Virus record (IMG/VR): IMGVR_UViG_3300008113_000014
Coordinates: 1-64,000 of that record
Source: a virus
Reading direction: 5' to 3' (one strand)
Length of the DNA: 64,000 bases
Position numbers and translations under genes: made by a program. Below, piece by piece: positions 25,701 to 51,429 of this stretch. The notes beneath the pieces were generated by a model. It did not search any database. It had not been told where the DNA came from and was given only the letters and a program-made list of their open reading frames with translations. The number at the start of each line of letters is the position of its first letter. The stretch's first letter is position 1.

Positions 25701-26952
25701 CAGATGCGGAAGCACTTCTAGAAAGTTCAGTAAATGGAGTATTAACTGATGCACTAACTTGAGTAATTCTAATTTTATTAACTGTTGTTTTTTTAATTAA
25801 AGATCCGTCTGCTTCAAACTTTGGCATATCAGCTTGTGACCAAGGTGTGTTTGTCCATACAGTTCCATTCCAGTACAAAACAATAACACCAGTATTATAG
25901 GAGTCGCTATTTGATAATGGTGATAAGTTTGATACCTGTGATGTCACTGGTGGTGTTGCAGAGTTTGTTATAGTAGCAGTAACTAGTGATTCATTTATAT
26001 AAAGGTTAAAAGTTGGAATAGTCATTAAAGTATTAAATTTAATTACTATCTTATTTGTCATTAACCCCTTTTCATAAATAGCCGTAATGCTTGGACTATA
26101 TGTAGGGTCAGTTGTTACAGGGTCAGATACAAAGTATCTGTATGGGTTAATGTCTGTAGGCAATGCACTCTTTAATACTGGCAATTTGTTATCTACTAAA
26201 AAGAAACTAGGGTTTTGAATAATTGAGGTAATTGGCATATATTTATTTCCAATTTTACTACTATCAAACTTAGATGGTAGTTGTGAAACAATTTTTCTAT
26301 GTCCTGGTGCAAATGAACAACTAGCATTACCTGAAGGAACGTAAGACTCACCTGGTCTAAAATATGAGAAAACACTATCTGTTGGAAACAAAGATGCATT
26401 CTTATAGTCAAAGATGGTTGTTTGATAAACTTCTGGTAAAGTAAAAGATACTAAAGGATTTGTATTTTCTTCAGAAAAACTGCTTGCTACAATTTTATAA
26501 TCAAATGAATTAAATGTTTCTTTTGACCCTACATATGTTACTACTTTTGTCCACGTTAATGATGTGGCTTCAGCTTGTTGAGAACCAGACTGTGAACCAG
26601 ATCCTTTTGCGTATGCGCTAATCATTACTGGTATTGGGCTATTGGTCTTTACGTATGTGATTACTTTATAGGCTGCTCCAGATAGTCCAGATACTGAGTA
26701 TTGTGCTGATCCAGTTCCGCCAGACATTTGAAAGCTTTTTGTTGTAAAGTTTTCTTTGGGCACTATTGCATCTACATATGTAGCAGAAGCTGATATTGTT
26801 TGCTTTGTTCCAGTACCCGCTACGGTAATGTAAGGTGAATTAAATAAATTATGATTCCACTCAGCAGAAACCACTGGAATAAGATCAATAGATTCCGAGT
26901 TTTTAAATATATCAGAACTCTGAGTTTGTGTTAATGCTCCCACATTTAGCAT
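22741..26952 (-). CDS. Large tail tip protein (1403 aa)
   Basis: A 1403-residue protein between the putative distal tail protein and the fibre genes. It is mainly beta-strand in character with several domains. A central part has I-I-T-D-I-L-D-L-A-G-F-T-D-Y, aromatic-rich segments and S-E-A-D-I-Q-Q-K-G-V-S-I, and the C-terminus has beta-rich V-Q-I-G-D-T-V-T-L-S-Y, typical for phage hub/tail-tip proteins whose last domain is an OB-like barrel. Position fits a baseplate hub or tail-associated protein. No peptidase motif was recognised in it. Its start overlaps the upstream stop (ATAATG). Confidence 0.72.
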   Translation of the reverse strand: MLNVGALTQTQSSDIFKNSESIDLIPVVSAEWNHNLFNSPYITVAGTGTKQTISASATYVDAIVPKENFTTKSFQMSGGTGSAQYSVSGLSGAAYKVITYVKTNSPIPVMISAYAKGSGSQSGSQQAEATSLTWTKVVTYVGSKETFNSFDYKIVASSFSEENTNPLVSFTLPEVYQTTIFDYKNASLFPTDSVFSYFRPGESYVPSGNASCSFAPGHRKIVSQLPSKFDSSKIGNKYMPITSIIQNPSFFLVDNKLPVLKSALPTDINPYRYFVSDPVTTDPTYSPSITAIYEKGLMTNKIVIKFNTLMTIPTFNLYINESLVTATITNSATPPVTSQVSNLSPLSNSDSYNTGVIVLYWNGTVWTNTPWSQADMPKFEADGSLIKKTTVNKIRITQVSASVNTPFTELSRSASASADLKRMHLIEVSPRLEVDLSDFVTGLDLEKSLDGSNTVLPISSMNSNDVNITFSGIPATKNGSIVPIFSNQSDNSLTILSNMLRNNIKFYVNFHLRSSAVLGASATAHSNVYIPAGVFYSDSWKENDIQDVTVQAYDVSKYLQSKPSPDYVANLKTVFEIITDILDLAGFTDYDYDSLYRICNNKSQPLDISYYYVNSRDKTIIDALNDIFVAYQIGAYIDEYGIMRFLSLFDILSNTSEGLTISEADIQQKGVSISNAQKPGKISLRYQTPRVKQSPSLQNVKNLKIKDSPSFIYTTSNDVVWEQQSADSLGFNYLKESMSSDSNVLTINKNDLLDIFHTFNMDTNGYVAVEGEIMSFQYKEYEISSLSDETQSKTVSIKNSLELSSEITDFIKTNTVELVVNDSQSLVEGVRQEQNDDILITPTGNITNVQRGMYGTLPTSHSRITSLSSKGLTEKTISSSFAFSTSTGNTTITNNHDNADNINLPNVTKLGIISQGSSNTKIAVCPSSETSRSYKTYSVKFDIPDQDQAAAGLYINQSSTGSLQPLFVEMIKFSATNPNLGIPYDPPRYTYIMAIYDSTTLYSYSDVTSQCNNALNKLPRIFKNYPNAIAPAPKYGYVFDPIFNLRVVLNKTDGSDGENGTIEDPNTALTIFLNNIEITSWQIPDTSTSVADWKAPEINKRSRVRQKVTVPNMYGESKSFGFYASSVPRAIPDVSYPGLTSSGSVVANLREIHATEKPLMSRNAGYFYQETEFLNGIVQNQPLSLNSLSYIMQTTPEVSGITFYDVQYSTPAAVSVDFLPIQYAVVYHPGTSKEQQAFALKKIVTQESVAYSTPLNTGFRARMALANNSLHMVLLTNEPNEVVKAKINLKLWTNEIIASSEPDILEALIDEANQNDVAQLDSEWVQSKFAGQKMLKLVESSLDGFAITTTLEIFGNPLVQIGDTVTLSYNLNGMLNQKHVVTAISHSFENGLSTSLTLSRIKQ

Positions 26953-27425
26953 TATATCTCCGTAAACTCAATGCTCATATCAACATAGTCTGAAACCTTT
27001 GTTCTATTAATAATTGTTTTAGAAAAATCAGTTATAAACACATGATATGTTTTAGACCTGTTCTGTGCTGTAACAAATATTCCTAATGGCTGTGATCCAA
27101 AGCCTGAGTCTACATTAAGTCCTGAAGATACAATCTTTAAGTAAATAGGCAGTCCTGCGTTAGACTTATAAAATGACTCAAGCCAAGCAGCGCTATAAAA
27201 ACCATCAACACACTCAGAATGCTTTGATGGAACATATTTCCAAGAACAAGAAATATTATTTTTTTGAGCAACAACATATTTTCTCATTTTGCCATTGGCC
27301 ATGCGGGATTGTGTTTCAATTAACTCTGTAGAAATATCAATGGCATCTCTATTATGATCTGTTATCTTATACCAAGTGTTACCATCAATAGAGATCTGTA
27401 TTCCTGCATCAATTAAATATGCCAT
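26952..27425 (-). CDS. Putative distal tail protein
   Basis: A 157-residue protein located directly after the tape measure, where distal tail (Dit-like) proteins normally lie. It starts MAYLIDAGIQISIDG, has a W-Y-K-I-T segment and strand-rich sequence, and contains two Cys. It is short for a Dit, so it may be only the ring domain. It is coupled to both neighbours by TAATG-type overlaps. Confidence 0.6.
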   Translation of the reverse strand: MAYLIDAGIQISIDGNTWYKITDHNRDAIDISTELIETQSRMANGKMRKYVVAQKNNISCSWKYVPSKHSECVDGFYSAAWLESFYKSNAGLPIYLKIVSSGLNVDSGFGSQPLGIFVTAQNRSKTYHVFITDFSKTIINRTKVSDYVDMSIEFTEI

Positions 27426-30400
27426 TATCTGCCCACCAAATTCGTTTTATTGTTTTTGCTTTGTATTCTTTCTAATTGTATCATAACCTCTTGTGCTATT
27501 TGCTTAGGGTCTTTATCTGCACCGTTAATTGTAATGTTATTTGTAACAGGTCCAGAAGATGAGAAGTTCTTGTTTTCTTGTGCAGTAAGTACACGCTCAC
27601 CCTTGTGAAGCTGTGCAATTTGATCTTCAGGAATGTATGGTGAACCAACTTCGTAAGATGGAAGTTTGTATTTAGCAAGACCGCCATTAGCAAAACGAGA
27701 ACCTTTGGCAATTTGAATTTTTCTTTCTATGGCTTTTATTTCTTCTTTAGTAAGATCTGTTTTATATTGGTAATAACCCATTTCTTTTCTAATTGACTCT
27801 ATATCTGGATTGCTGACAGTGCCTCCCATGAAACCGTACATATTCATTATGTTGAATGGATTTAATGAATGGCTGCCCTGCACATCGCCTAGGTGCCTGT
27901 CTAACCATGATGATTTACCACTTGGATTGCACATGTCGCAGTTTGCTGACTCACCTAGGTGCCCTTGAAAAGAGTGAATAATCTCATGCATCGCTACGTC
28001 TTTTCCGCCAGCGGTGCTAAAAGGATTTAATCCCATCCAAGTGTCGCTCATTTTTGCTCTAGGCATGGTAATTGTGCCAGAATTCATTGCCCACCAGTTA
28101 GCAGGACCACCGCCTCGCTCTTCTCTTAGAGCATCTCCATCAAGAAATTGTATTGGAATAACTTTAGGGCCTGTATACTTGCTATATGCAGCTTTTGCAA
28201 GTATTTTTTCTCTATTTTCTGGCTTGATAACTCTAAACGGGACTCCTGTTAATCTTGTCAACTCATTTGCAGCCATATAGATAGAGGATAGATTTCTTTT
28301 TCTATCTTCTTTTCCTTCAGAAGTGTAATCTTTTACATCCAGATAAACTGGCCTTAGTTTACCATAACCGCTGTCTCTTTGAGCCTTGTAGTATGGTGTA
28401 CGAATGGAAGCAGGTGAGGTGCCATCATCAGGAGATACGGATTCAGGGACATAAGTGTCAAATCCAGCTCCTGTTTCTCTGGATTGAAATCTTTGAACAA
28501 CATTTTTTAGTACTGAAAATGCAGACAGTGGCGGGATCTTACCGCTAACTAATGTTTTTAATTGATTTAATGCAAACTTTGGAAGAGATTCTGGTTTTTG
28601 GTTATCAGTAAACTTAGGAAGATATGGGTTCCAGTAATCCCAGTCTCTGGCCCACTCTGGCACTTGCTCACCTGTTCTCATTGCCATATCATGTGGGGCT
28701 GTGTTTGATGGACCTGAAGTTGGAAACAGTTTCATTCCCATATCGTGTGGGGCTGATCTAGATGGAATTATTCCTCTCATCATATCGTAAGCATGCTGAG
28801 GTAAATTTGTTTTGTGCTTGTGTCCTACTGGACCAACACCGCCAGGGCTTCCTTTACCAAATTTTTGAATTAGTCCACCCTTAGCGTATCCATCAAGTTG
28901 ATCTTTAAATGATAGGTCTGAAAATCCTACAGCATGCCCAGACTGTCTTTTTCGTAATTCCAACTCTTTAGCTTTTTTAGCAAGTGCTGCTGCAGATGGT
29001 GTTTTTACTGGTGCTGGAACAACGCTTGCTGCCATTGGTTGAAATGGCGACCAATCTACTCCTGGTGCTGCTCCCGCTCTTAGTCTACCTATCAGATTTG
29101 CATAAGATTGTATTTCATCTGGATCAGTGAGATTAAATGATGCTATGGCTTCTTCTACCAATGGAATTTGTCTGTTAATTTCTTTTATAATTGCATCATG
29201 GTATTCTGCTGGTGTCATTGATTGTGCAATTGGTGCTGTTGTTTCAGCAAACCATCTTTTTGCCCCGCCCTTTACACCTAGTAAATTAATAGCAGCCTGC
29301 TCTTGCATTGATGGCATTGAGGTGGAAAGCTTTCTCATTCCAGAAGCTACATCGTATACTCCTGAAGTTCCTGAGTCAACAAGATTTTTTCCAGACAGGT
29401 TTGCTTTTTGTAAATCTTTATCTCCACGCCACAAAGATGCAACCAGTTGTGTTATATATTCACCCTGTGTAAATTCTCCAGATGGGTTTGCAAATTCTGG
29501 ATTATAAGCAGACTTTAATGCTAGCAGTGTTCTTTTTGCTTTTGCATCTGAAGGATCCATTATTTTTATTAAATCTTGAATTGGTGTAGTTAGTCCAACT
29601 TTTCTTGAAATTACATTAGATCTAATTTCAGATAAACCAGATAAAGAATCTGTTACTGGCTTGACAAATTCTTTTGTTCCATCTGCACCCTCATATAGAC
29701 CACCAATTCCTCTAACTGGAAAACTTTTACCAACTGTTGCTTCTAGTTGTTTTCCTAATTGTGTGATTGGAAGATCTTTAAAGATACCGTTTTTAATAGA
29801 GGCATCTATTGCTTTCATTGTTTGTTCAGATGCTCGTGCTTCTTCTAGTGCTTTTATTCCTCGTGGCATACCAAGGAATAAACCTCTACTAGCACCCATT
29901 CCCATAAAGTTAAGTGGCAGCATGGATGCTCCTAGAGCGTCTCCACCTTTACCTTGTCCAGTAATAAGTCTTAATAGTTGTGCTGTTCCAAACATTTCAG
30001 CAGCTGGTGTATTTTTAGAATTAAATCCAGATACATATCTTTGGAACCAATTTTGTTTTTTACCATACTTTGGTCTTGATGCTAATCCGCCTTCTGCAAA
30101 TCTACCCTTCATTTCAATAATCTTAGCTCGCATGGCAGTCTTAGATAAATCGCCAAGAATTTGACTTTCTACTTCACTTGCAGAACCCATGCCAGCATCT
30201 ACATACTTATACTTATCGTGTCTGCTATAACCAATAGTTCCATCACTACCTAGCCATGAGTATGCAGGTCCGTCAGAAACTTTTATTGGCTTAGTAAGTT
30301 TAGCAGCAGTCTTTGCTGCCCCACCCCTTCTAGCCATTTCATATGCATACTTAGCATAGGCAGTAGTACCTTTAGGAGGTGCTTGAATTAGCGTATTTGT

Positions 30401-33400
30401 AAGAGCGTCATGAGGGTGTGGATGTACGTAGCCACCGTCATGATAACCAATCATGTTTCCGCCACCGCCACCTAGTAGCCCGCCAAAAGCTGCAGATGCC
30501 CCAGAGCCAATTAATGGGGGAGTAATCTTATCAATACCCATTCCAGGACCACTAGACTTTCTTAGTTGCTCTGCTAGCTGATGCCAGTAATCAGAGAACT
30601 GACCTACCTTTCCACTAAATGGAAGTCCTGGTATCTCTACTCCGCCCCATGGATCTTTGCCAGCATTATTAAATATAGGCTTTCCATTTTTATCAAAGCC
30701 AATCGGAGAGCCCTGATATAGTCTTTCTAATTCTCCCCAGTATCTTCCATATGGACTTCCAGTAGGCTGGTTATTAGAGTCATAGCTTCTTGCTGGCTTT
30801 TTCCACCAAGGATGGACTGCTCCGCCCTTTGCAAACTTTCCAGCATTCAATGCATCCATTACTCCTGTGCCATACTTCTTTACAGAAGAAGCTTTGACAA
30901 CATACTCTCCATCTGAAAGCATTGCTGGAATAGAGTCAGATGTTGCAGTTCCTGGACCCTTTACTTTTCCACCAGGCTTGAAGTGCTTTATGTATCCACC
31001 TTCTGCTAATTTTTGTGGCTTACCCATTCTAATAAAGTCACCATTTTTTACAACTTTCCACTTATATGTAAGTCCATCTGCACCAATTGTACTAACAACA
31101 ATAAAGTCTGTAGCTTTCTTTAAACGATCAAGATCTGTTTGGATTTGACTTCTAACGTATTTTTCAAATTCATCTCTAGTTTTTCCTGTTACTTGTGATG
31201 TATCCCACCACTGTTTGCTATCATTCCATGCTACTTTTGGATCAAGGTCTGCAGCTGTGACAGGAATAGCTGCATCTGCAGTTGTTGCACCCGCAGGCCA
31301 TATCTTTGGTTTATTTTGTTCAACCCAAGCTTTTCTGCTTGCTGCACTTACATCTACTGGAACCGCAGTAGAAGAGTTTGTGCCTGATTGTGTTGTATCA
31401 AATGTTATAGAACCAATAGCTGCAACAATGCTTGCTGCGTTAGCAGCTGCATCTGCAGATGCATCATTAATAGCAGATACAACATCGTCAGACATTGCTT
31501 GAATTGCATCTATTTGGGCTTGCAGTGCATCAGATTTTGCTTGTAGGTCTGATATTGTTTTTTCTTTATTAAATTCTACTGTATTGTTTTGTTTTTCTTG
31601 TAAAAGGCTTGCAGCTTCAATATACTTTCCTCTAATTTTAGCTTCAAGAATTTGCTGATCAAGGTCTTGTTGTTTTTGTGTATACTCAGATTGTTTTTTT
31701 AACTCATCTGTTATTGCTTGTTCTTTCTTTATTTCATCATCAATAATTTTCTTTTTTGCTTTAAGAAGTTTAATTTGTTCTTTTGTAGATTTTACTTGAG
31801 CATCAGCTAACTCTTTGTATTTTTTTGTTACGCTTCCTGAATTTGTTTTTTCCCATATTTTTGGATCATTTAAAAAATCAAGGGCTGCCTTAGCTAAATC
31901 TTTTCCTTGTGTTGCTGGATTAATTTTTGCTTCAAACCCTTTTCCTACTGCAGCCATAATTAATCCTGTTTGCTCTAACGTTATTCCGTTTACTCTCTTT
32001 AGTGCTTGAATTGCTTGAGCTGCCTGCAAGTTTCCTACTTGAATGTATGCATAATATAGTGCACCCAAACCTTCTGCTGCAGAAAGACCAGATTGTGCAA
32101 CACCATCTAAAATAACATCTAGTTGCTGTAAAGATGATGCATTTGCTGCTGCAGCCATTACTTGCGTTAATGCTGTTCCTAATGTTAGAGAGCTTCCTGA
32201 TGCATCTTTTAGTGTTTGCACAACTGCTTCAGTTTGACTTTTTAAATTCATAAAATTAGATCCAACCATAGCAACCTTACCACTAGATGCTAAGATTAAA
32301 TCAAAAGTTTTTTGTGCTTGATCTGGTTTAATTTGACCCAGAGCAACTTGTGTTGTAACAAAAGCTTGGGCAATTTTATTAATTTTTTCTGGAGATGATT
32401 CTTCTGTTAAACCAGTTATAAGATCTCTTAAAGGATTTCCTTCTGGCAGCTGGCTAACCATTTCATTAAATCTAGCAAGCTCATCTGTTGTATATCCAAA
32501 TGCTTTGCCAATATTTTCTAAGCTACCGCCTACAATTCCAAGAGATACACCAAAGTTACTTATAGAAGTATCTACATTAACTATTTCATTACCAAAATAT
32601 GCAGCTATATCAGCACTAGATTTGAATGCTGCTTCTGTCATTGCTTTTTGAATTCTTTGTTTTTCAATTAATTCACTTATTGCAGATGATACAAGACCTA
32701 TTGCTGCACCAGCTGCAGCTCCCCAAGGACCAAATAGCATACCCATGCTTGCACCAGTCATTGTTGACTGTATTAGATTTTTACCAGCAAAATCAGGCGC
32801 TGCACTAAGAGCCATATTAGCACCCATAAGTCCTACGCTGCCTTGAACGCCACCGAACTTAGCTCCAACTTTTTTAATGTTTGCGTATTTTGCTTTTCTT
32901 GCACGCTGATTTTTTAGTTTCTTTTTTTCCTTCTCAGACATACCGACCATTGGAAGAAGGGTTGTTCCTGATGGCATGCTTGGTCCTATTGGAGCAGGGC
33001 CCTGTTCTCTTGTTGCAATGCGACGAGCCTTACCACTTTGAGTTGATTTTTCTTTTGTTTTATTTATTGCTTCTTCTTTTGCTGTTTGATATGCAATACC
33101 ATCTTCTTTACCGTGGGTAGCAGCCAATCGGTGGGGGCTTCCTCTGTCTAGGCTTGCCTCATAAGGATCTTTTGTTGATGCCTTAACTCCCTTTGTATAC
33201 TCTGTGCCATCTTTAGATCCACGTTTAAATAAAGATTTAATTCTACCTCTGTCGTCATAGTAGTCGTCTCTAACTGATGCATCTACAACAGCACTTTGAT
33301 TTCTTTTAACTCTTTTACCTGAAAGCCCCATAAATGATTTTCCTGAACCAAACACTGCAGCATCCGATGGAACTTGTTGCCCTGGTTTATAAGGAGTGCC

Positions 33401-36382
33401 GAATTGAACTTGGCCCTTTGCCATATCTCTTGGAACTGCATTAAGCTGTGTTCTATTAAATACATTAGTCTTTGTATTTTTTTCGTCATAGCCAGCAACT
33501 GCGCCCATTTCTTTTAGCAATGTTGCTTTGTATGCTGCCTCTTTTATTTTTCTTTTTTCTAAATCTGTTTTTGCTTCTTTTACAAGTTGTAGTGTTGCTT
33601 TTTCTGCTTCTGCAATTTTTTGTTTTGCCAAGGTAGATGCCTCTTCTGCAGACAAACCTTTTTGCATTAATGTATACTCTAATGCTTGAGTAGATTTCAT
33701 TTTTGTAAAATCTGCTTTTTTAGCTTCAACTTCTTGTTGAGACAGACCAACTAAGCTTTTTTCTAAATCTAGTTGTTCTTGAACTAATATTTTTGCTTGT
33801 TCTTTTTGCGCCCTAGTATTATCTGTTTCATTTTTAGATGGTTTATCAATATAGGCTTGAGCTTTTTTACTTGCTTCTTGCGCTTGTTCAAATGTTATTG
33901 GTTCTCCTGCAATGCCAGCGGAATTTAACATAAAGTTTCTATCAGCAGATGTTTTAGTTGTTGTTCCAGCAAATTCACCAGTTCCGATTGCTGTTACATC
34001 TTCAATATTATTTTCTAATAAGCTACTAGACAGACTTCTAAGAGATGTTTCAATAGTTCTACTTACTGTTACCATTCCATCGGCTGTTGTGGACAATCTT
34101 TGAATACTAACACCAACATCTGGCAAAACTGACAAAACTCTTTGCATTGTTGGGTCTGACAGTGTTGTAGTTAATTGTGCTGGAGTAAATCCCTCTATGT
34201 GGCTTGCTACTGTTTTGGCACCTGGCTTTCCAACAGAATACCCAGGAATATTGTCTGCAATCATTCCATTAATGAGTCCACCATACTTCTTGCTCATCTT
34301 TGTTGGAATTACTGTTTCTCCAGGCATGAGTAGTGATAGCTCTGTGTCTTTATTTCCTGTACCGCCAACTACTGCAGGCTTTCCATTTGCTCTCTTTGTA
34401 ACTGGTGCTCTTTTAAATGGAACCTTGGTTGGCATTAATTGTGCCTGTGCTGCAACTGCTCTGTAATATGCTCTTGTTAGTGCATCAACTGCTGAAGCTT
34501 CTACAGTAAAGGTTTGTGCAAGATTTTTGTGCACTTGATCAAGAGATGCTGCAACCGCTGCTGCATTTCTTTGCTCAAGAGTCATATACTTAACTTCAGT
34601 ACCTAGCGTTGCACTAGACTTACCAGCTTTATTAAAAATACTTTTTAGGAATGTAAAGCCTTTAATTATATTTGCTAAACCGTTTGCAAGCAAACCAAAT
34701 GTCATTAATAATACTGGACCAAGGCCTGCAACTATTGCTGTTAATGTAACAATAACCTTTTTTGTTCCATCTCCAAGATTATTAAACTTATCTAAAATTT
34801 TTGTAACAAACTCAGCAATTGGTGTTACTGCTTTTAAAAACTCTTCTCCTACTGGAACTAATGATAGCTTAAGATTTTCAATAGATGCTTTAAATTTGTT
34901 CATTGCAGACTCTGAAGTCATTCCTAATTCTTTTTCTGACAATGCTGCAAGTTCTTGAATTGATGATCCAGCTAGGTCAAGTACACGTGATGCCTGAGTT
35001 CCTTCTTTTGTTACGTTTGCAAATAAAGTAGATAGACGAGCAAACTGAAACTTACCAAACATTTGTTCAATTGCTTGTGCTCTATTTAGTGGATCAAGTT
35101 GATTTAATGCTGTTGCAAAGTCAATAACTGTTTTCTTTAAGTCACCCTTATTGTCTACAACAATCTTTTTTATATTAATACCAAGACTGTTAAGCATTGC
35201 TGCTGCTTTTCCAGTTGGGTTAATCATAGAAGCAAGACCAGACTTGAGTGCGTTAGCACCTTCTGATGCGTTTATTCCACCTTCCTTCATTGCAGTCATA
35301 AAGAATGCTAAATCCTTAACATCTCCGCCAAGCTGTTGAATAACTGGTGCTGCCTTTGGAATTGCAGTTGACATGTCATCAAGTGATAAAACAGTTTGGT
35401 TTTCTACTGCGTTAAGAAAGTCAATATTCGTTGCTAAATCTTGAGATGACATTGAGAATGCATTTTGCAATGCAATGGTAGTTTCAAGTGCCTTTTGGCT
35501 TTCAACTTGTCCTAAAACAGAAAGCTTGGTTGCTGCTGCTGTTTGTCTTTGAAGGTCAACTCCTTTAAAACCTGCTGCTGCAGCTTCTGCTGCTAAACCT
35601 ACTGTATCTTTTACTGCGATGCCATACTTTGTAAACTCTTTTCCAAGAGCCTTTATTTCTTCTAATGCTGCAGTACTTTCTGTCGTTGATGTAAATAGAT
35701 CACCATATACCTTTTTAAAACGTATTGCCTGAGTTTCCATATCCATAAATGTTTTAGCAGCTGCTGCTCCAACAGCCATTAATGGAATTGTAAAACCAAC
35801 CATAAGCTGACGGCCAGCCCATTGTGTATTTTTACCAAAGTTTAAAAGATTAGTTGATCCTTGCTTTAACAGCTGATTAAGAATTGCCTGCTTTTCAGCA
35901 GCAATCATTGTCTTTGTTGCAAGATCATTCATATCAAGAGATAGAGGTCTTACGGCAATTGCCTTCATTGCACCGCTAGCATCACGGCCCATCTTAATAT
36001 ATTGTGTTTGAAGGTCTTTTACATTTTCTCTTGCTACTTTGTTTATTGTATCAAACTCAGTTTTAAATAGTTTTCCAAAAGTTTTTGATGCCCCACCAGC
36101 ATATCTAAAATATTCTTTCATGGAGAACTTGTTTTTTTCTAAAGAGCTTGTAAAAGATTCTGTGGTTGTTTTGATTGTTCTCATTTGGGCAGAGAACTGG
36201 CCTGTAGCATTAATTGAGTTAATTAAGTTTTGCTGCATTTGGGCAGTGACTGCATTTGCTGCAGCACCGCCTTTTGCCATTGAGGTATGAAAGGCTGATA
36301 TCTGTCTTTGTAAGTTTTTGATACTGGCTAGTGCTTCAGTAGTATCAATACTTACTTTAATATTAGACTGAACATCAGCCAT
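27425..36382 (-). CDS. Giant tape measure protein with metzincin-like domain
   Basis: A 2985-residue tape measure that sets tail length and is passed into the cell with the DNA. A TP901-type core lies at about residues 200-480 (M-D-M-E-T-Q-A-I, N-A-V-E-N-Q, G-G-D-V-K-D-L, E-G-G-I-N-A-S-E). Hydrophobic segments occur near 530-580 and 1190-1230. Coiled-coil sequence is found around 1500-1600. Several S-D-G-E-Y-V-V-K / P-G-E-T-V-I-P motifs, common in tape measures, are present. Near the C-terminus is a zinc protease motif H2799-E-I-I-H2803 with G-H following and a downstream N-I-M-N Met-turn-like site. A segment at about 2215-2440 has kinase-like features. A length rule of about 1.5 angstroms per residue predicts a tail near 0.45 micrometres. 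Confidence 0.93.
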   Translation of the reverse strand: MADVQSNIKVSIDTTEALASIKNLQRQISAFHTSMAKGGAAANAVTAQMQQNLINSINATGQFSAQMRTIKTTTESFTSSLEKNKFSMKEYFRYAGGASKTFGKLFKTEFDTINKVARENVKDLQTQYIKMGRDASGAMKAIAVRPLSLDMNDLATKTMIAAEKQAILNQLLKQGSTNLLNFGKNTQWAGRQLMVGFTIPLMAVGAAAAKTFMDMETQAIRFKKVYGDLFTSTTESTAALEEIKALGKEFTKYGIAVKDTVGLAAEAAAAGFKGVDLQRQTAAATKLSVLGQVESQKALETTIALQNAFSMSSQDLATNIDFLNAVENQTVLSLDDMSTAIPKAAPVIQQLGGDVKDLAFFMTAMKEGGINASEGANALKSGLASMINPTGKAAAMLNSLGINIKKIVVDNKGDLKKTVIDFATALNQLDPLNRAQAIEQMFGKFQFARLSTLFANVTKEGTQASRVLDLAGSSIQELAALSEKELGMTSESAMNKFKASIENLKLSLVPVGEEFLKAVTPIAEFVTKILDKFNNLGDGTKKVIVTLTAIVAGLGPVLLMTFGLLANGLANIIKGFTFLKSIFNKAGKSSATLGTEVKYMTLEQRNAAAVAASLDQVHKNLAQTFTVEASAVDALTRAYYRAVAAQAQLMPTKVPFKRAPVTKRANGKPAVVGGTGNKDTELSLLMPGETVIPTKMSKKYGGLINGMIADNIPGYSVGKPGAKTVASHIEGFTPAQLTTTLSDPTMQRVLSVLPDVGVSIQRLSTTADGMVTVSRTIETSLRSLSSSLLENNIEDVTAIGTGEFAGTTTKTSADRNFMLNSAGIAGEPITFEQAQEASKKAQAYIDKPSKNETDNTRAQKEQAKILVQEQLDLEKSLVGLSQQEVEAKKADFTKMKSTQALEYTLMQKGLSAEEASTLAKQKIAEAEKATLQLVKEAKTDLEKRKIKEAAYKATLLKEMGAVAGYDEKNTKTNVFNRTQLNAVPRDMAKGQVQFGTPYKPGQQVPSDAAVFGSGKSFMGLSGKRVKRNQSAVVDASVRDDYYDDRGRIKSLFKRGSKDGTEYTKGVKASTKDPYEASLDRGSPHRLAATHGKEDGIAYQTAKEEAINKTKEKSTQSGKARRIATREQGPAPIGPSMPSGTTLLPMVGMSEKEKKKLKNQRARKAKYANIKKVGAKFGGVQGSVGLMGANMALSAAPDFAGKNLIQSTMTGASMGMLFGPWGAAAGAAIGLVSSAISELIEKQRIQKAMTEAAFKSSADIAAYFGNEIVNVDTSISNFGVSLGIVGGSLENIGKAFGYTTDELARFNEMVSQLPEGNPLRDLITGLTEESSPEKINKIAQAFVTTQVALGQIKPDQAQKTFDLILASSGKVAMVGSNFMNLKSQTEAVVQTLKDASGSSLTLGTALTQVMAAAANASSLQQLDVILDGVAQSGLSAAEGLGALYYAYIQVGNLQAAQAIQALKRVNGITLEQTGLIMAAVGKGFEAKINPATQGKDLAKAALDFLNDPKIWEKTNSGSVTKKYKELADAQVKSTKEQIKLLKAKKKIIDDEIKKEQAITDELKKQSEYTQKQQDLDQQILEAKIRGKYIEAASLLQEKQNNTVEFNKEKTISDLQAKSDALQAQIDAIQAMSDDVVSAINDASADAAANAASIVAAIGSITFDTTQSGTNSSTAVPVDVSAASRKAWVEQNKPKIWPAGATTADAAIPVTAADLDPKVAWNDSKQWWDTSQVTGKTRDEFEKYVRSQIQTDLDRLKKATDFIVVSTIGADGLTYKWKVVKNGDFIRMGKPQKLAEGGYIKHFKPGGKVKGPGTATSDSIPAMLSDGEYVVKASSVKKYGTGVMDALNAGKFAKGGAVHPWWKKPARSYDSNNQPTGSPYGRYWGELERLYQGSPIGFDKNGKPIFNNAGKDPWGGVEIPGLPFSGKVGQFSDYWHQLAEQLRKSSGPGMGIDKITPPLIGSGASAAFGGLLGGGGGNMIGYHDGGYVHPHPHDALTNTLIQAPPKGTTAYAKYAYEMARRGGAAKTAAKLTKPIKVSDGPAYSWLGSDGTIGYSRHDKYKYVDAGMGSASEVESQILGDLSKTAMRAKIIEMKGRFAEGGLASRPKYGKKQNWFQRYVSGFNSKNTPAAEMFGTAQLLRLITGQGKGGDALGASMLPLNFMGMGASRGLFLGMPRGIKALEEARASEQTMKAIDASIKNGIFKDLPITQLGKQLEATVGKSFPVRGIGGLYEGADGTKEFVKPVTDSLSGLSEIRSNVISRKVGLTTPIQDLIKIMDPSDAKAKRTLLALKSAYNPEFANPSGEFTQGEYITQLVASLWRGDKDLQKANLSGKNLVDSGTSGVYDVASGMRKLSTSMPSMQEQAAINLLGVKGGAKRWFAETTAPIAQSMTPAEYHDAIIKEINRQIPLVEEAIASFNLTDPDEIQSYANLIGRLRAGAAPGVDWSPFQPMAASVVPAPVKTPSAAALAKKAKELELRKRQSGHAVGFSDLSFKDQLDGYAKGGLIQKFGKGSPGGVGPVGHKHKTNLPQHAYDMMRGIIPSRSAPHDMGMKLFPTSGPSNTAPHDMAMRTGEQVPEWARDWDYWNPYLPKFTDNQKPESLPKFALNQLKTLVSGKIPPLSAFSVLKNVVQRFQSRETGAGFDTYVPESVSPDDGTSPASIRTPYYKAQRDSGYGKLRPVYLDVKDYTSEGKEDRKRNLSSIYMAANELTRLTGVPFRVIKPENREKILAKAAYSKYTGPKVIPIQFLDGDALREERGGGPANWWAMNSGTITMPRAKMSDTWMGLNPFSTAGGKDVAMHEIIHSFQGHLGESANCDMCNPSGKSSWLDRHLGDVQGSHSLNPFNIMNMYGFMGGTVSNPDIESIRKEMGYYQYKTDLTKEEIKAIERKIQIAKGSRFANGGLAKYKLPSYEVGSPYIPEDQIAQLHKGERVLTAQENKNFSSSGPVTNNITINGADKDPKQIAQEVMIQLERIQSKNNKTNLVGR

Positions 36383-48483: not shown

Positions 48484-51429
48484 CTATGCTTTTATATCTC
48501 CAGATAGTAACCATGCATCTGTTGCTACCTTTGTAAGTGTAGCAGATGAGTAGAGTGCTCTTAGAGTATTTCCTGGTGCTGCATAGATTGTTACTCCAGC
48601 TGCTGCTACAAAGTTTGCTCCACCTGCTCCAGATGATTGCCAGAAACTAATTGATGTTCCTACTGGAAAAGCAGTTGTTGCCATAGTTGGAACCGTTACT
48701 GCATATGCTCCTGAAATTTGAATTAACTGATCTCTCAGAGCAAGCCCACCTGTTGATAAGTTGTAGGCTGCTCCAATTGTAGTTGTTGTAGTTGTTAGTG
48801 ATGGTACACCAGCTTTTGTCTGAGTACCGTCTGTAAACGCTACACCTGAAGCAGAGGCTGTAATTAAACCTGATGCTGTAACTGCTGCTGCATTTACAGT
48901 GCCTGTGAATGTTGGTGATGCTAGAGGTGCTTTATTTCCAAGTGCAGTTGTAATGGTTGCTGCGTAGTTTGCATCATCACCAAGTGCTGCTGCGAGTTCA
49001 TCAAGAGTGTTAAGTGCTGCTGGTGCACCAGTTGTTAAAATAGCAAGTTCTTGCTGAACGAAACTTGTTGTAGCAACTTGTGTTGTATTAGTTCCAGTTG
49101 CTGCAAGTGGTGCAGTTGGTGTTCCAGTAAGAGCTGGAGATGCTAATGGTGCCTTAAGTCCTAGGTCTGTAGTAAGACCTGAAATTTTAGACTGAGCAAT
49201 TCCTGCTGCTGAAGCAATATCTCCATCAACAATTGTTCCATCTGCAATCATTCCTGATGTAACAGTTCCTGCTGGAAGAGTTACAGTGCCTGTAAATGTA
49301 GGTGATGCAAGTGGAGCCTTAAGAGCAAGTGCTGTTGATGTAGCATCTGAAATTGGCTTAAGTGCATCTGATGTATTGTCTGCGTTACCAAGGCCAACCA
49401 TAGACTTGGTTACACCAGAAACGGTGCCAGTAAATGTTGGTGAGGCAATTGGGGCTTTAAGATCAAGTGCTGCTTGTGTAGCGCTTGATATTGGTTTTAG
49501 AGAATCTGTTGTGTTGTCAACGTTAGCAAGACCTACCATTGTCTTAGTTATACCAGCAACGGTGCCAGTAAATGTTGGAGATTCAAGTGTAGCGTAACCT
49601 GAAATTAGTGCTCCTGTAGGTATTGTAACTGTTCCTGTAAATGTTGGTGAGGCAATTGGGGCACGTAGACCAAGAGCAGTTTGTGTTGCTGTTGAAACTG
49701 GCTTTGCAGTATCTGCTGTGTTATCAACGTTTCCAAGACCTACGTGTGCTTTTGTAACACCAGAAACTGTTCCTGTAAATGTTGGTGAAGCTAGTGGAGC
49801 ATATGTAGATGCTGCTGTAGAAGATGCAAGCTTAAGATCAAGCTGTGTTTGTGTAGCAGTTGAGATTGGTTTGTTTGCGTCTGTTGTGTTATCAACATTT
49901 CCAAGGCCAACGTGTGCTTTTGTAACACCAGCAACTGTTCCTGTGAATGTTGGAGAAGAAAGTGGAGCGTATGTTGTGCTAGCAGCTACTGCTCCAAGCT
50001 TTGAAGCAAGTTGTGTTTGAATATTTTCAGTTAATCCATCAAGGTATCCAATTTCAGTATTAGATACTGAACCAACAGTTAATGATGTTGCTTCAAGTGC
50101 ACCAACTGCAAGGTCATCAAGTGATCCTTGTCCAAAATTAACAGTAGTTGTTGGTGCATCAGCAACTCCCTTAAACAGTTTCCATTTTGCATCAGATGAG
50201 TCCTTTACAAAACCTTGATGTTTAGCTGTTCCATCGTTGTATGAGCCTACAAAACCAATATCTACAAGGTTGGCAGCATTACCACTACCAAGATAAATTA
50301 CTGGGTCTTCAACTGTAAGATTTGTTGTGTTTACAGTTGCACTTGTTCCAGAAACTGTTAAGTTACCGTCAACAATTAAATCATTGCTAACTGTAAGGTT
50401 GACTGCAGTTGCTGTACCAGTTAATGCTGGGCTAGCAAGAGGTGCCTTAAGATCAAGTGCTGTTTGTGTAGCGGTTGAAACTGGCTTTGCTGCATCTGAA
50501 GTATTATTTACATCTGCAAGTCCAACATGTGCCTTTGTTACACCGCTTACAGTTCCAGTAAATGTTGGGGATGCGATAGGTGCTTTAAGGTCAAGCGCTG
50601 CTTGTGTGGCTGTTGAGATTTGCTTATTTGCGTCTGATGTATCGTCTACGCTTGTAAGGCCAACCATTGCTTTTGTAATACCAGATACAGTTCCTGTAAA
50701 TGTTGGGGAAGCAATTGTGGCTCTAAGATTAATTTGATTTTGAACATTAGCTGAAAGTCCATTAAGGTATCCAATTTCAGTATCGTCAACGTTTGCAACT
50801 TTTGCCTGGAATGCTGTTGCATCAACGGCAAGTGAAATTGTGTTTCCAGGATCACTGTATGTCTTTAAAAGACCATTTCCAGCAACTATAGCAGTGTCAA
50901 TAGCATCCTGTGAAAGTTCTGCAATGTCTGCTGAGTTTGCCTTTAAATTCAGTGCAGTCTGTGTAGCTGTAGAAACAGGCTTATCAGCATCTGATGTATT
51001 GTCAACATTTCCAAGACCAACATCTCCCTTTACCAATCCTGCTGGAGATGTAATAGTTTTATTTGTTAAAGTTTGTGTTCCTGTTGTTGTAACTAAAAGT
51101 GAAGTATCTGCAATACCGTGGATGGCTGTTGTATCTGCTTGGTGGTTTGAAAGGTTTGTGGCAACTGTTGTAAAGAAAGCTGGATCATCGCCAATTGCTG
51201 CTGCAAGCTCATCAAGAGAGTTGAGTAGTCCTGGCGCACCTGCAATTGTTGTAGCAAGGTCAACGAAGTATGCTAGGTTTACCCAGTGGTTTACTCCATC
51301 ACCAATCTTAAATTTATTTGTGTCTGACTCATAACCAATTTCACCTATTGCTAGAATTGGCCCATTTCCACTATTTGTAGAGATCCACTGCGCTGCAGTG
51401 CCTCTACGTTGTTGCATTCTTGTTGCCAT
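48484..51429 (-). CDS. Repeat-rich long tail fibre (981 aa)
   Basis: A 981-residue fibre. The first 60 residues (M-Q-Q-R-R-G-T-A, then A-I-G-E-I-G-Y-E-S-D-T-N-K-F-K-I-G-D-G) form the common phage N-terminal attachment domain found in many tail hyaluronidase/fibre proteins. It is followed by seven copies of a roughly 45-residue unit containing G-L-x-[NSD]-[VA]-[DN]-[DN]-T-[STA]-D-x-x-K-x-[IV]-S-[TSD]-A and S-P-T-F-T-G-T-V, the Phage_fiber_2 type repeat. The C-terminal 80 residues look like a tip domain. A GGAGGAG site and an extended -10 lie upstream. Confidence 0.88.
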   Translation of the reverse strand: MATRMQQRRGTAAQWISTNSGNGPILAIGEIGYESDTNKFKIGDGVNHWVNLAYFVDLATTIAGAPGLLNSLDELAAAIGDDPAFFTTVATNLSNHQADTTAIHGIADTSLLVTTTGTQTLTNKTITSPAGLVKGDVGLGNVDNTSDADKPVSTATQTALNLKANSADIAELSQDAIDTAIVAGNGLLKTYSDPGNTISLAVDATAFQAKVANVDDTEIGYLNGLSANVQNQINLRATIASPTFTGTVSGITKAMVGLTSVDDTSDANKQISTATQAALDLKAPIASPTFTGTVSGVTKAHVGLADVNNTSDAAKPVSTATQTALDLKAPLASPALTGTATAVNLTVSNDLIVDGNLTVSGTSATVNTTNLTVEDPVIYLGSGNAANLVDIGFVGSYNDGTAKHQGFVKDSSDAKWKLFKGVADAPTTTVNFGQGSLDDLAVGALEATSLTVGSVSNTEIGYLDGLTENIQTQLASKLGAVAASTTYAPLSSPTFTGTVAGVTKAHVGLGNVDNTTDANKPISTATQTQLDLKLASSTAASTYAPLASPTFTGTVSGVTKAHVGLGNVDNTADTAKPVSTATQTALGLRAPIASPTFTGTVTIPTGALISGYATLESPTFTGTVAGITKTMVGLANVDNTTDSLKPISSATQAALDLKAPIASPTFTGTVSGVTKSMVGLGNADNTSDALKPISDATSTALALKAPLASPTFTGTVTLPAGTVTSGMIADGTIVDGDIASAAGIAQSKISGLTTDLGLKAPLASPALTGTPTAPLAATGTNTTQVATTSFVQQELAILTTGAPAALNTLDELAAALGDDANYAATITTALGNKAPLASPTFTGTVNAAAVTASGLITASASGVAFTDGTQTKAGVPSLTTTTTTIGAAYNLSTGGLALRDQLIQISGAYAVTVPTMATTAFPVGTSISFWQSSGAGGANFVAAAGVTIYAAPGNTLRALYSSATLTKVATDAWLLSGDIKA
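48900..50720 (-). repeat. Tandem DNA repeats in tail fibre gene
   Basis: Multiple diverged copies of a module coding A-S-P-T-F-T-G-T-V (for example near 49290, 49440, 49570, 49760, 49940 and 50550). Copy-number change by recombination is plausible here. Confidence 0.75.

What the first reader, a model, noticed from the sequence alone, without database searches (positions are those of the whole stretch)
27800..28480. Metzincin-like protease domain in the tape measure
The codons at 27974-27988 encode H-E-I-I-H (residues 2799-2803) followed by G-H, and about 40 residues later N-I-M-N, like the Met-turn of metzincins. The region before it (A-N-E-L-T-R-L-T-G-V-P-F-R-V) matches the N-terminal half of matrixin-like enzymes. 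Tape measures with peptidoglycan hydrolases are known; a zinc protease near the end that would reach the host envelope first or last is unusual. It may cut surface proteins or process the tape measure itself.
Basis: partly seen in the sequence, partly recalled or inferred. Interest (0 to 1): 0.7.

Follow-up and report, generated by a model that had tools for sequence, protein, structure and literature searches.

The report
Metzincin protease in phage tape measure
The protein that sets the tail length of this uncultured phage carries, near its end, a zinc-protease domain folded like a small cousin of matrix metalloproteinases; related phages swap this domain in and out with other enzyme-like parts, so the tail protein appears to double as a carrier of interchangeable enzymes.

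Summary
Residues 2673-2873 (27764-28366, minus strand) of a 2985-aa tape measure protein (TMP) form a metzincin-fold domain. AlphaFold models of this domain and of a distant relative match matrix metalloproteinases, karilysin and snapalysin. Seven distinct members, all in TMPs, keep HExxH, one His and a Met-turn Met. The zinc motif is split: His1-His3 spacing is 15-39 instead of 10, as in leishmanolysin. No Pfam, NCBIfam or PHROG profile or solved-structure sequence recognises it.

The wider finding is the setting. Short TMPs (about 1700 aa) have core plus C-tail. Long ones insert up to about 2000 aa of shuffled modules: this protease, a second HExxH family, kinase-, ART- and GNAT-like parts (motif reading only), CHAP-like, OmpA. 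In Streptomyces relatives the slot holds an M23 peptidase.

Most likely an active endopeptidase carried in with the tail that cuts host, probably envelope, protein. Self-processing is the main rival. Fold well supported; activity and target untested. New variant of a known kind.

The parts
27425..36382 (-). Tape measure protein gene, 2985 aa
   Evidence: open frame; Pfam PhageMin_Tail PF10145 at residues 243-443, E 5.4e-26; PHROG tape measure families, best E 4.7e-96
27764..28366 (-). Metzincin-like protease domain, residues 2673-2873
   Evidence: profile of relatives; AF2 models and PDB fold searches
27974..27988 (-). HEIIH, residues 2799-2803: first two zinc ligands and catalytic Glu
   Evidence: HE[IL][ILV]H in all members
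27869..27871 (-). His2838, inferred third zinc ligand
   Evidence: aligns with the only His between HExxH and Met in L033, L044, L068, L070, L118; 8 residues before Met in six of seven members
27845..27847 (-). Met2846, inferred Met-turn methionine (FNIM)
   Evidence: invariant in the alignment
27875..27964 (-). Insertion (about residues 2807-2836) splitting the zinc motif; holds a CxxC (27929-27940) not shared with relatives
   Evidence: spacing comparison; pLDDT below 50
28247..28312 (-). Long 'backing' helix of the metzincin N-terminal subdomain (residues 2691-2712)
   Evidence: model secondary structure H19-40
27695..30832 (-). Variable cargo region, residues 1851-2896, between TMP core/spacer and conserved C-tail
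   Evidence: TMP comparison
29051..29923 (-). Cargo module K (residues 2154-2444), kinase-like by motif only
   Evidence: shared with L010, L015, L098, L100, L112; invariant Lys, Glu, D-x-D-x4-N, Asp; no PDB or Pfam support
30833..30985 (-). Spacer 'SDSIPAMLSDGEYVVKASS' (residues 1800-1850), repeated between modules in related TMPs
27428..27694 (-). Conserved TMP C-tail (residues 2897-2985)
   Evidence: about 50-92% identical in TMPs with quite different cargo
26952..27425 (-). Downstream tail gene (157 aa, phrog_1194-like), used as anchor to fetch related TMPs
   Evidence: same position as the Streptomyces phage gene annotated minor tail protein

Best explanation
The domain is a zinc endopeptidase of metzincin fold, built into the C-terminal cargo region of the tape measure protein. 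Shown by computation: metzincin fold; conserved HExxH, one conserved His and Met; only TMPs found to carry it; a place in an interchangeable slot that, in Streptomyces phage relatives, holds an M23 peptidase. Inferred: zinc is held by His2799, His2803 and His2838, with Glu2800 as general base; the C-end of the TMP lies at the tail tip and leaves first during infection, so the protease is carried into the host envelope and perhaps the cytoplasm; there it cuts one or a few host proteins that would otherwise hinder entry or early infection. The variable insertion beside the active site may tune the substrate.
For: Fold: the model of relative L068 matches MMP-13 at Foldseek E 1.2e-4, probability 1.00, with all 50 top hits matrixins; VIA Z 9.9 (4.3 A, 141 aligned) to karilysin and 9.8 (3.4 A, 123) to snapalysin. 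The window's own model gives MMP-3 first (E 8e-3) and Z 8.8 (4.2 A, 147) to karilysin. Catalytic residues are kept in members 23-49% identical to the window; dN/dS is 0.41-0.44. Position: a conserved C-tail follows it, and in phage lambda the TMP C-end sits in the tail tip (PMC10721106). Envelope link: the slot holds M23 in Streptomyces phages; an OmpA domain (E 3.8e-13) precedes the protease in L070; a CHAP-like module lies in L008. Not only self-directed: in L044 it is the only recognisable enzyme module, and multi-module TMPs such as L009, L010, L011 and L042 have no HExxH in the part held.
Against: No activity, metal or substrate is shown. The loop with His2838 is modelled at pLDDT below 50. 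There are no virion data and no target can be named. If some neighbouring modules are ATP-, NAD- or acetyl-CoA-dependent, they would point to the cytoplasm rather than the envelope. T5 shows that TMPs can be cut next to such a domain, which keeps self-processing open.
Confidence: 0.5

Rival explanations
1. Self-processing: the metzincin cuts the TMP itself, in assembly or after ejection, releasing the C-terminal part or freeing the other cargo modules.
For: In T5 the TMP pb2 is cleaved between its hydrophobic stretch and its C-terminal metallopeptidase motif (PMC10038345). Processing of multidomain phage proteins by zincin-like peptidases is a stated theme for polyvalent proteins (PMC5512222). 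The domain lies between modules and beside low-complexity GG linkers.
Against: Many multi-module TMPs have no HExxH domain of either kind, so release does not need one; L044 has the protease without another recognisable enzyme to release. No conserved cleavage site was noticed, but this was not tested systematically.
Confidence: 0.25
2. Cytoplasmic effector: the domain is delivered into the cytoplasm with the DNA and cuts an intracellular host protein (defence, transcription), as proposed for the peptidases of polyvalent proteins.
For: Co-occurring modules look like kinase, ART and GNAT folds, which need cytoplasmic cofactors (motif reading); the shuffled modular layout resembles polyvalent proteins.
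Against: Those fold readings got no Pfam or PDB support. The envelope-type neighbours (M23 in the homologous slot, OmpA) are the better-supported ones.
Confidence: 0.15
3. Peptidoglycan hydrolase: the domain cuts peptide cross-links and replaces the M23 enzyme of the Streptomyces relatives.
For: Same slot as M23; adjacent OmpA-type domain in L070; the T5 pb2 metallopeptidase motif is muralytic.
Against: The metzincins matched by the fold searches are protein proteases (general knowledge). L008 carries a CHAP-like module as well as the metzincin.
Confidence: 0.06
4. A degenerate, structural domain without activity, kept as filler.
For: The zinc motif is stretched and variable; models are of medium confidence.
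Against: All catalytic residues are kept across members only 23-49% identical to the window, while the rest diverges; dN/dS near 0.4.
Confidence: 0.04

Closest known systems
Matrixin-type metzincins (MMPs, karilysin; also snapalysin; clan MA(M))
   Same: Sheet, backing helix, active-site helix and C-terminal helix in the same order; HExxH, later His, Met 8 residues after that His (as in MMPs by general knowledge); fold search hits
   Different: Third His 15-39 residues after the first instead of 10; no sequence match to Pfam or PDB chains; part of a phage tail protein
Leishmanolysin (M8)
   Same: Metzincin whose HExxHxxG...H motif is split by an insertion (62 residues) without loss of active-site geometry (PMC5572447)
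   Different: Insertion here 5-29 residues; domain of only about 200 residues; no sequence match
Phage T5 TMP pb2 with C-terminal metallopeptidase motif
   Same: Peptidase-type domain at the C-end of a TMP, kept at the tail tip (PMC10038345)
   Different: The T5 domain is muralytic; a metzincin fold or module shuffling is not described there
Stanwilliamsviridae TMPs (Streptomyces phages Moab, Enygma)
   Same: Homologous TMP core and neighbouring gene, C-tail of the same type, enzyme in the same slot
   Different: M23 peptidase instead of metzincin
Polyvalent proteins (Iyer et al. 2017, PMC5512222)
   Same: Large injected phage proteins with combinations of peptidase and other effector domains
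   Different: That paper contains neither 'tape measure' nor 'metzincin'; its zincins use a Glu third ligand; here the scaffold is a tail tape measure

Membership tests
Metzincins (clan MA(M)) | N-terminal sheet with backing helix and active-site helix, C-terminal helix | tested here: met
   two models; top PDB hits are metzincins
Metzincins (clan MA(M)) | HExxH with catalytic Glu | tested here: met
   seven of seven members
Metzincins (clan MA(M)) | Compact HExxHxxGxxH/D spacing | tested here: not met
   third His at +15 to +39; leishmanolysin, an accepted metzincin, also departs from it. I therefore say 'metzincin fold, works like a metzincin' and file it in no named family
Metzincins (clan MA(M)) | Met-turn below the zinc site | tested here: inconclusive
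Matrixins (M10) | Match to the family profile | tested here: not met
   no Pfam or NCBIfam hit at E up to 10
Leishmanolysin (M8) | Match to the family profile | tested here: not met
   no Pfam hit; shares only the idea of a split motif
Tape measure proteins | TMP core domain and place upstream of distal tail genes | tested here: met
   PF10145 and PHROG tape measure hits; gene order parallel to Streptomyces phages
Polyvalent proteins | Delivered into the host with DNA | not testable with these tools
   plausible for a TMP from general knowledge; no virion or infection data
Polyvalent proteins | Multiple unrelated enzymatic domains in one polypeptide | tested here: inconclusive
   module shuffling shown; identity solid only for the metzincin, OmpA and M23, weak for CHAP, by motif for the rest

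The most novel reading that the evidence does not exclude
In this large group of uncultured phages the tape measure protein is a general delivery scaffold: between a fixed tail-length core and a fixed C-tail it carries a polymorphic, recombining set of effector enzymes (metzincin, a second zincin, kinase-like, ART-like, GNAT-like, wall hydrolases), a tail-based counterpart of polyvalent proteins and MuF toxins, with the metzincin as one host-directed protease.
Probability: 0.5. Interest if true: 0.82.

Novelty: new variant of a known kind. Interest (0 to 1): 0.66.

Why it matters
Enzymes in tape measure proteins are known mainly as wall hydrolases. A protein-cutting metzincin there, in a slot where related phages exchange modules, suggests that siphophage tails deliver enzymes against host proteins as well as DNA, and that part of the large size range of TMPs reflects cargo rather than tail length. 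It gives a testable list of candidate effector domains for uncultured phages, and a split-motif metzincin family outside current profile libraries.

Tried and rejected
Chance motif: rejected. Third ligand at the adjacent GH (His2808): rejected, a His there is present in only two of seven members. Membership in M10 or another profiled family: no Pfam, NCBIfam, PHROG or PDB-sequence match. Relatives outside TMPs: none in two scans of 84,980 species' genomes, in annotated phages or convincingly in plasmids; the genome and viral scans rest on short peptide patterns, so distant relatives can be missed. Leishmanolysin is not in the top 50 fold hits, which decides nothing. Profiles of the ART-like, second-zincin and K modules against the PDB gave nothing meaningful. 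Tblastn of four cargo modules against 50,697 phage records gave no match. Literature searches for tape measure plus metzincin, zincin, zinc protease or effector terms found no description of this, but only open-licence papers are held. The window model alone was too weak around the active site, so a second member was modelled.

Full report
What is there. The window belongs to a 108,863-base virus record. The minus-strand frame 27425-36382 encodes a 2985-residue tape measure protein: Pfam PhageMin_Tail at residues 243-443 and PHROG tape measure families. HEIIH lies at 2799-2803, coordinates 27974-27988, exactly as reported. The full TMP is identical in two further IMG/VR records. By shuffling, HExxH is expected 0.0105 times in such a protein, and the extended pattern never appeared in 2000 shuffles.

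Relatives. The domain itself found only the two identical copies at first. I therefore used the gene next door (26952-27425, phrog_1194-like) to fetch TMP C-ends from related phages, first 61 loci, then more, out of 362 stretches that encode a relative of it. Among them L008, L033 and L044 carry a diverged form of the domain. Searches with the growing alignment added L068, L069/L070 and L118. A profile separates members from all other fetched frames: about 200 bits or more for members, 7 bits for the next frame. Seven distinct members are known, all inside TMPs. None was found in the genome collection by two pattern-based scans, nor in annotated phages.

Active site. In L033, L044, L068, L070 and L118 there is exactly one His between HExxH and the conserved Met. 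It lies 8 residues before Met (15 in L044). The matching residue in the window is His2838 in GSHSLNPFNIM, with Met2846. L068 (HEILHQLGSIYGNGGHSKNPFNIM) and L118 (HEILHSLG...FFGHAKNPFNVM) show the link to the classical HExxHxxGxxH: the stretch between Gly and the last His has been lengthened. First-to-third His spacing is 15 to 39, against 10 in the classical motif. Leishmanolysin is a precedent, with 62 residues inserted at the same place and intact geometry (PMC5572447). Metzincins are otherwise described by HExxHxxGxx(H/D) and the Met-turn (PMC3427221).

Fold. AlphaFold2 with six sequences gave the window domain at pLDDT 63.5, pTM 0.68 and the L068 domain at 68.9, 0.75. The order of elements (strand, long helix, strands, active-site helix, C-terminal helix) is that of metzincins. 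Foldseek against the PDB: for the window model MMP-3 comes first at E 8e-3, followed mostly by MMPs and fragilysin; for the L068 model MMP-13 at E 1.2e-4, probability 1.00, with the top 50 all matrixins. VIA-align: Z 8.8 (4.2 A over 147) and Z 9.9 (4.3 A over 141) to karilysin; Z 8.5 and 9.8 to snapalysin. These Z values are only modestly above the level the tool calls common, but the ranking is uniform. Among viral models the hits are again M10-type proteases, including phage proteins such as the Zn-dependent protease of Lactobacillus phage 3-521. The region around the third His is modelled poorly, and I could not measure distances.

Setting. Comparing TMPs shows a core (to about residue 1630), a spacer with SDSIPAMLSDGEYVVKASS (1800-1850), a variable stretch, and a conserved C-tail (2897-2985). 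Of 73 TMP frames of at least 1650 residues, 30 are under 1870 (core plus C-tail) and 43 longer; some frames are cut by the ends of the fetched DNA, so lengths are lower bounds. The variable stretch holds recurring modules in changing order: L008 CHAP-MET-ART-GNAT; L033 ART-MET; L006 ART-KIN-second zincin-GNAT; L007 second zincin-ART-GNAT; window S-K-MET; L118 MET-second zincin-X. How sure the names are differs. OmpA before the metzincin in L070 is firm (E 3.8e-13). CHAP in L008 is sub-threshold (E 0.006). The second zincin has invariant HExxH and a later GxxExxA, with weak Pfam echoes. KIN (DxHxGN...iDFG), K, ART-like and GNAT-like are my reading of motifs, without Pfam or PDB support (KIN and GNAT were not run against the PDB). 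None of the four modules searched (ART, K, KIN, second zincin) has a tblastn match in 50,697 phage records.

Comparison with cultured relatives. The neighbouring gene and TMP core match Streptomyces phages of Stanwilliamsviridae. Their TMPs end with an M23 peptidase (E 5e-23 and 2e-22), followed by a C-tail of the same type (LHKNETVLT versus LHKGERVLT). So the slot is a place for enzymes that meet the cell envelope.

How it probably works. In phage lambda the TMP C-end lies in the tail tip, and the TMP is thought to leave the tail and span the envelope (PMC10721106). A protease there would arrive early. The envelope-type neighbours (M23, OmpA, CHAP-like) favour action on envelope proteins; the possible cofactor-dependent modules favour the cytoplasm. 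Self-processing has precedent in T5 pb2 (PMC10038345) and in the polyvalent-protein literature (PMC5512222), but long TMPs without any HExxH, and L044 with the metzincin as its only recognisable enzyme, speak against it as the sole role. Selection is purifying (dN/dS 0.41 and 0.44). I put host-protein cleavage, with envelope preference, first at 0.5.

Verdict. The domain is real and of metzincin fold, with a split zinc motif, in no profiled family. Its place in a recombining TMP cargo region is the more surprising part. Activity, target and timing are untested.

Noticed in passing
window 29051-29923 (TMP residues 2154-2444): Module K, shared with several other TMPs, has an invariant Lys in FVKP, a Glu, D-x-D-x4-N and a later Asp, which reads like a HipA/PI3K-type kinase fold; no database support.
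   Followed up: partly
L006 TMP residues 2204-2468; also L007, L037, L050 (two copies), L100, L118: A second, unrelated HExxH domain family in TMPs with a later invariant GxxExxA, gluzincin-like; L118 has it together with the metzincin.
   Followed up: partly
L070 TMP residues about 2370-2465: OmpA-family domain (Pfam E 3.8e-13) inside a phage tape measure protein, ahead of the metzincin.
   Followed up: yes
L006, L007, L008, L033, L036, L039, L047, L091 TMPs: A well conserved module of about 180 residues (WHGSQP...GMGFFGTSSKSEAxxYA) that looks like an ADP-ribosyltransferase; no Pfam, PDB or phage-record match.
   Followed up: partly
window 30833-30985 and repeats in L006, L007, L008, L087: Spacer SDSIPAxLSxGEYVxKASS occurs one to three times per TMP between modules and, in diverged form, in Streptomyces phage TMPs; may be where modules recombine.
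   Followed up: partly
window 48484-51429: 981-aa protein with a major tropism determinant (Mtd) N-terminal domain (E 2e-9), a receptor-binding type seen in diversity-generating systems; no reverse transcriptase was looked for.
   Followed up: no
L044 TMP residues about 1690-1850: Two tandem repeats of about 80 residues (YLPDGxEARKxTRQERD...MPQETNKELINR) ahead of the metzincin.
   Followed up: no
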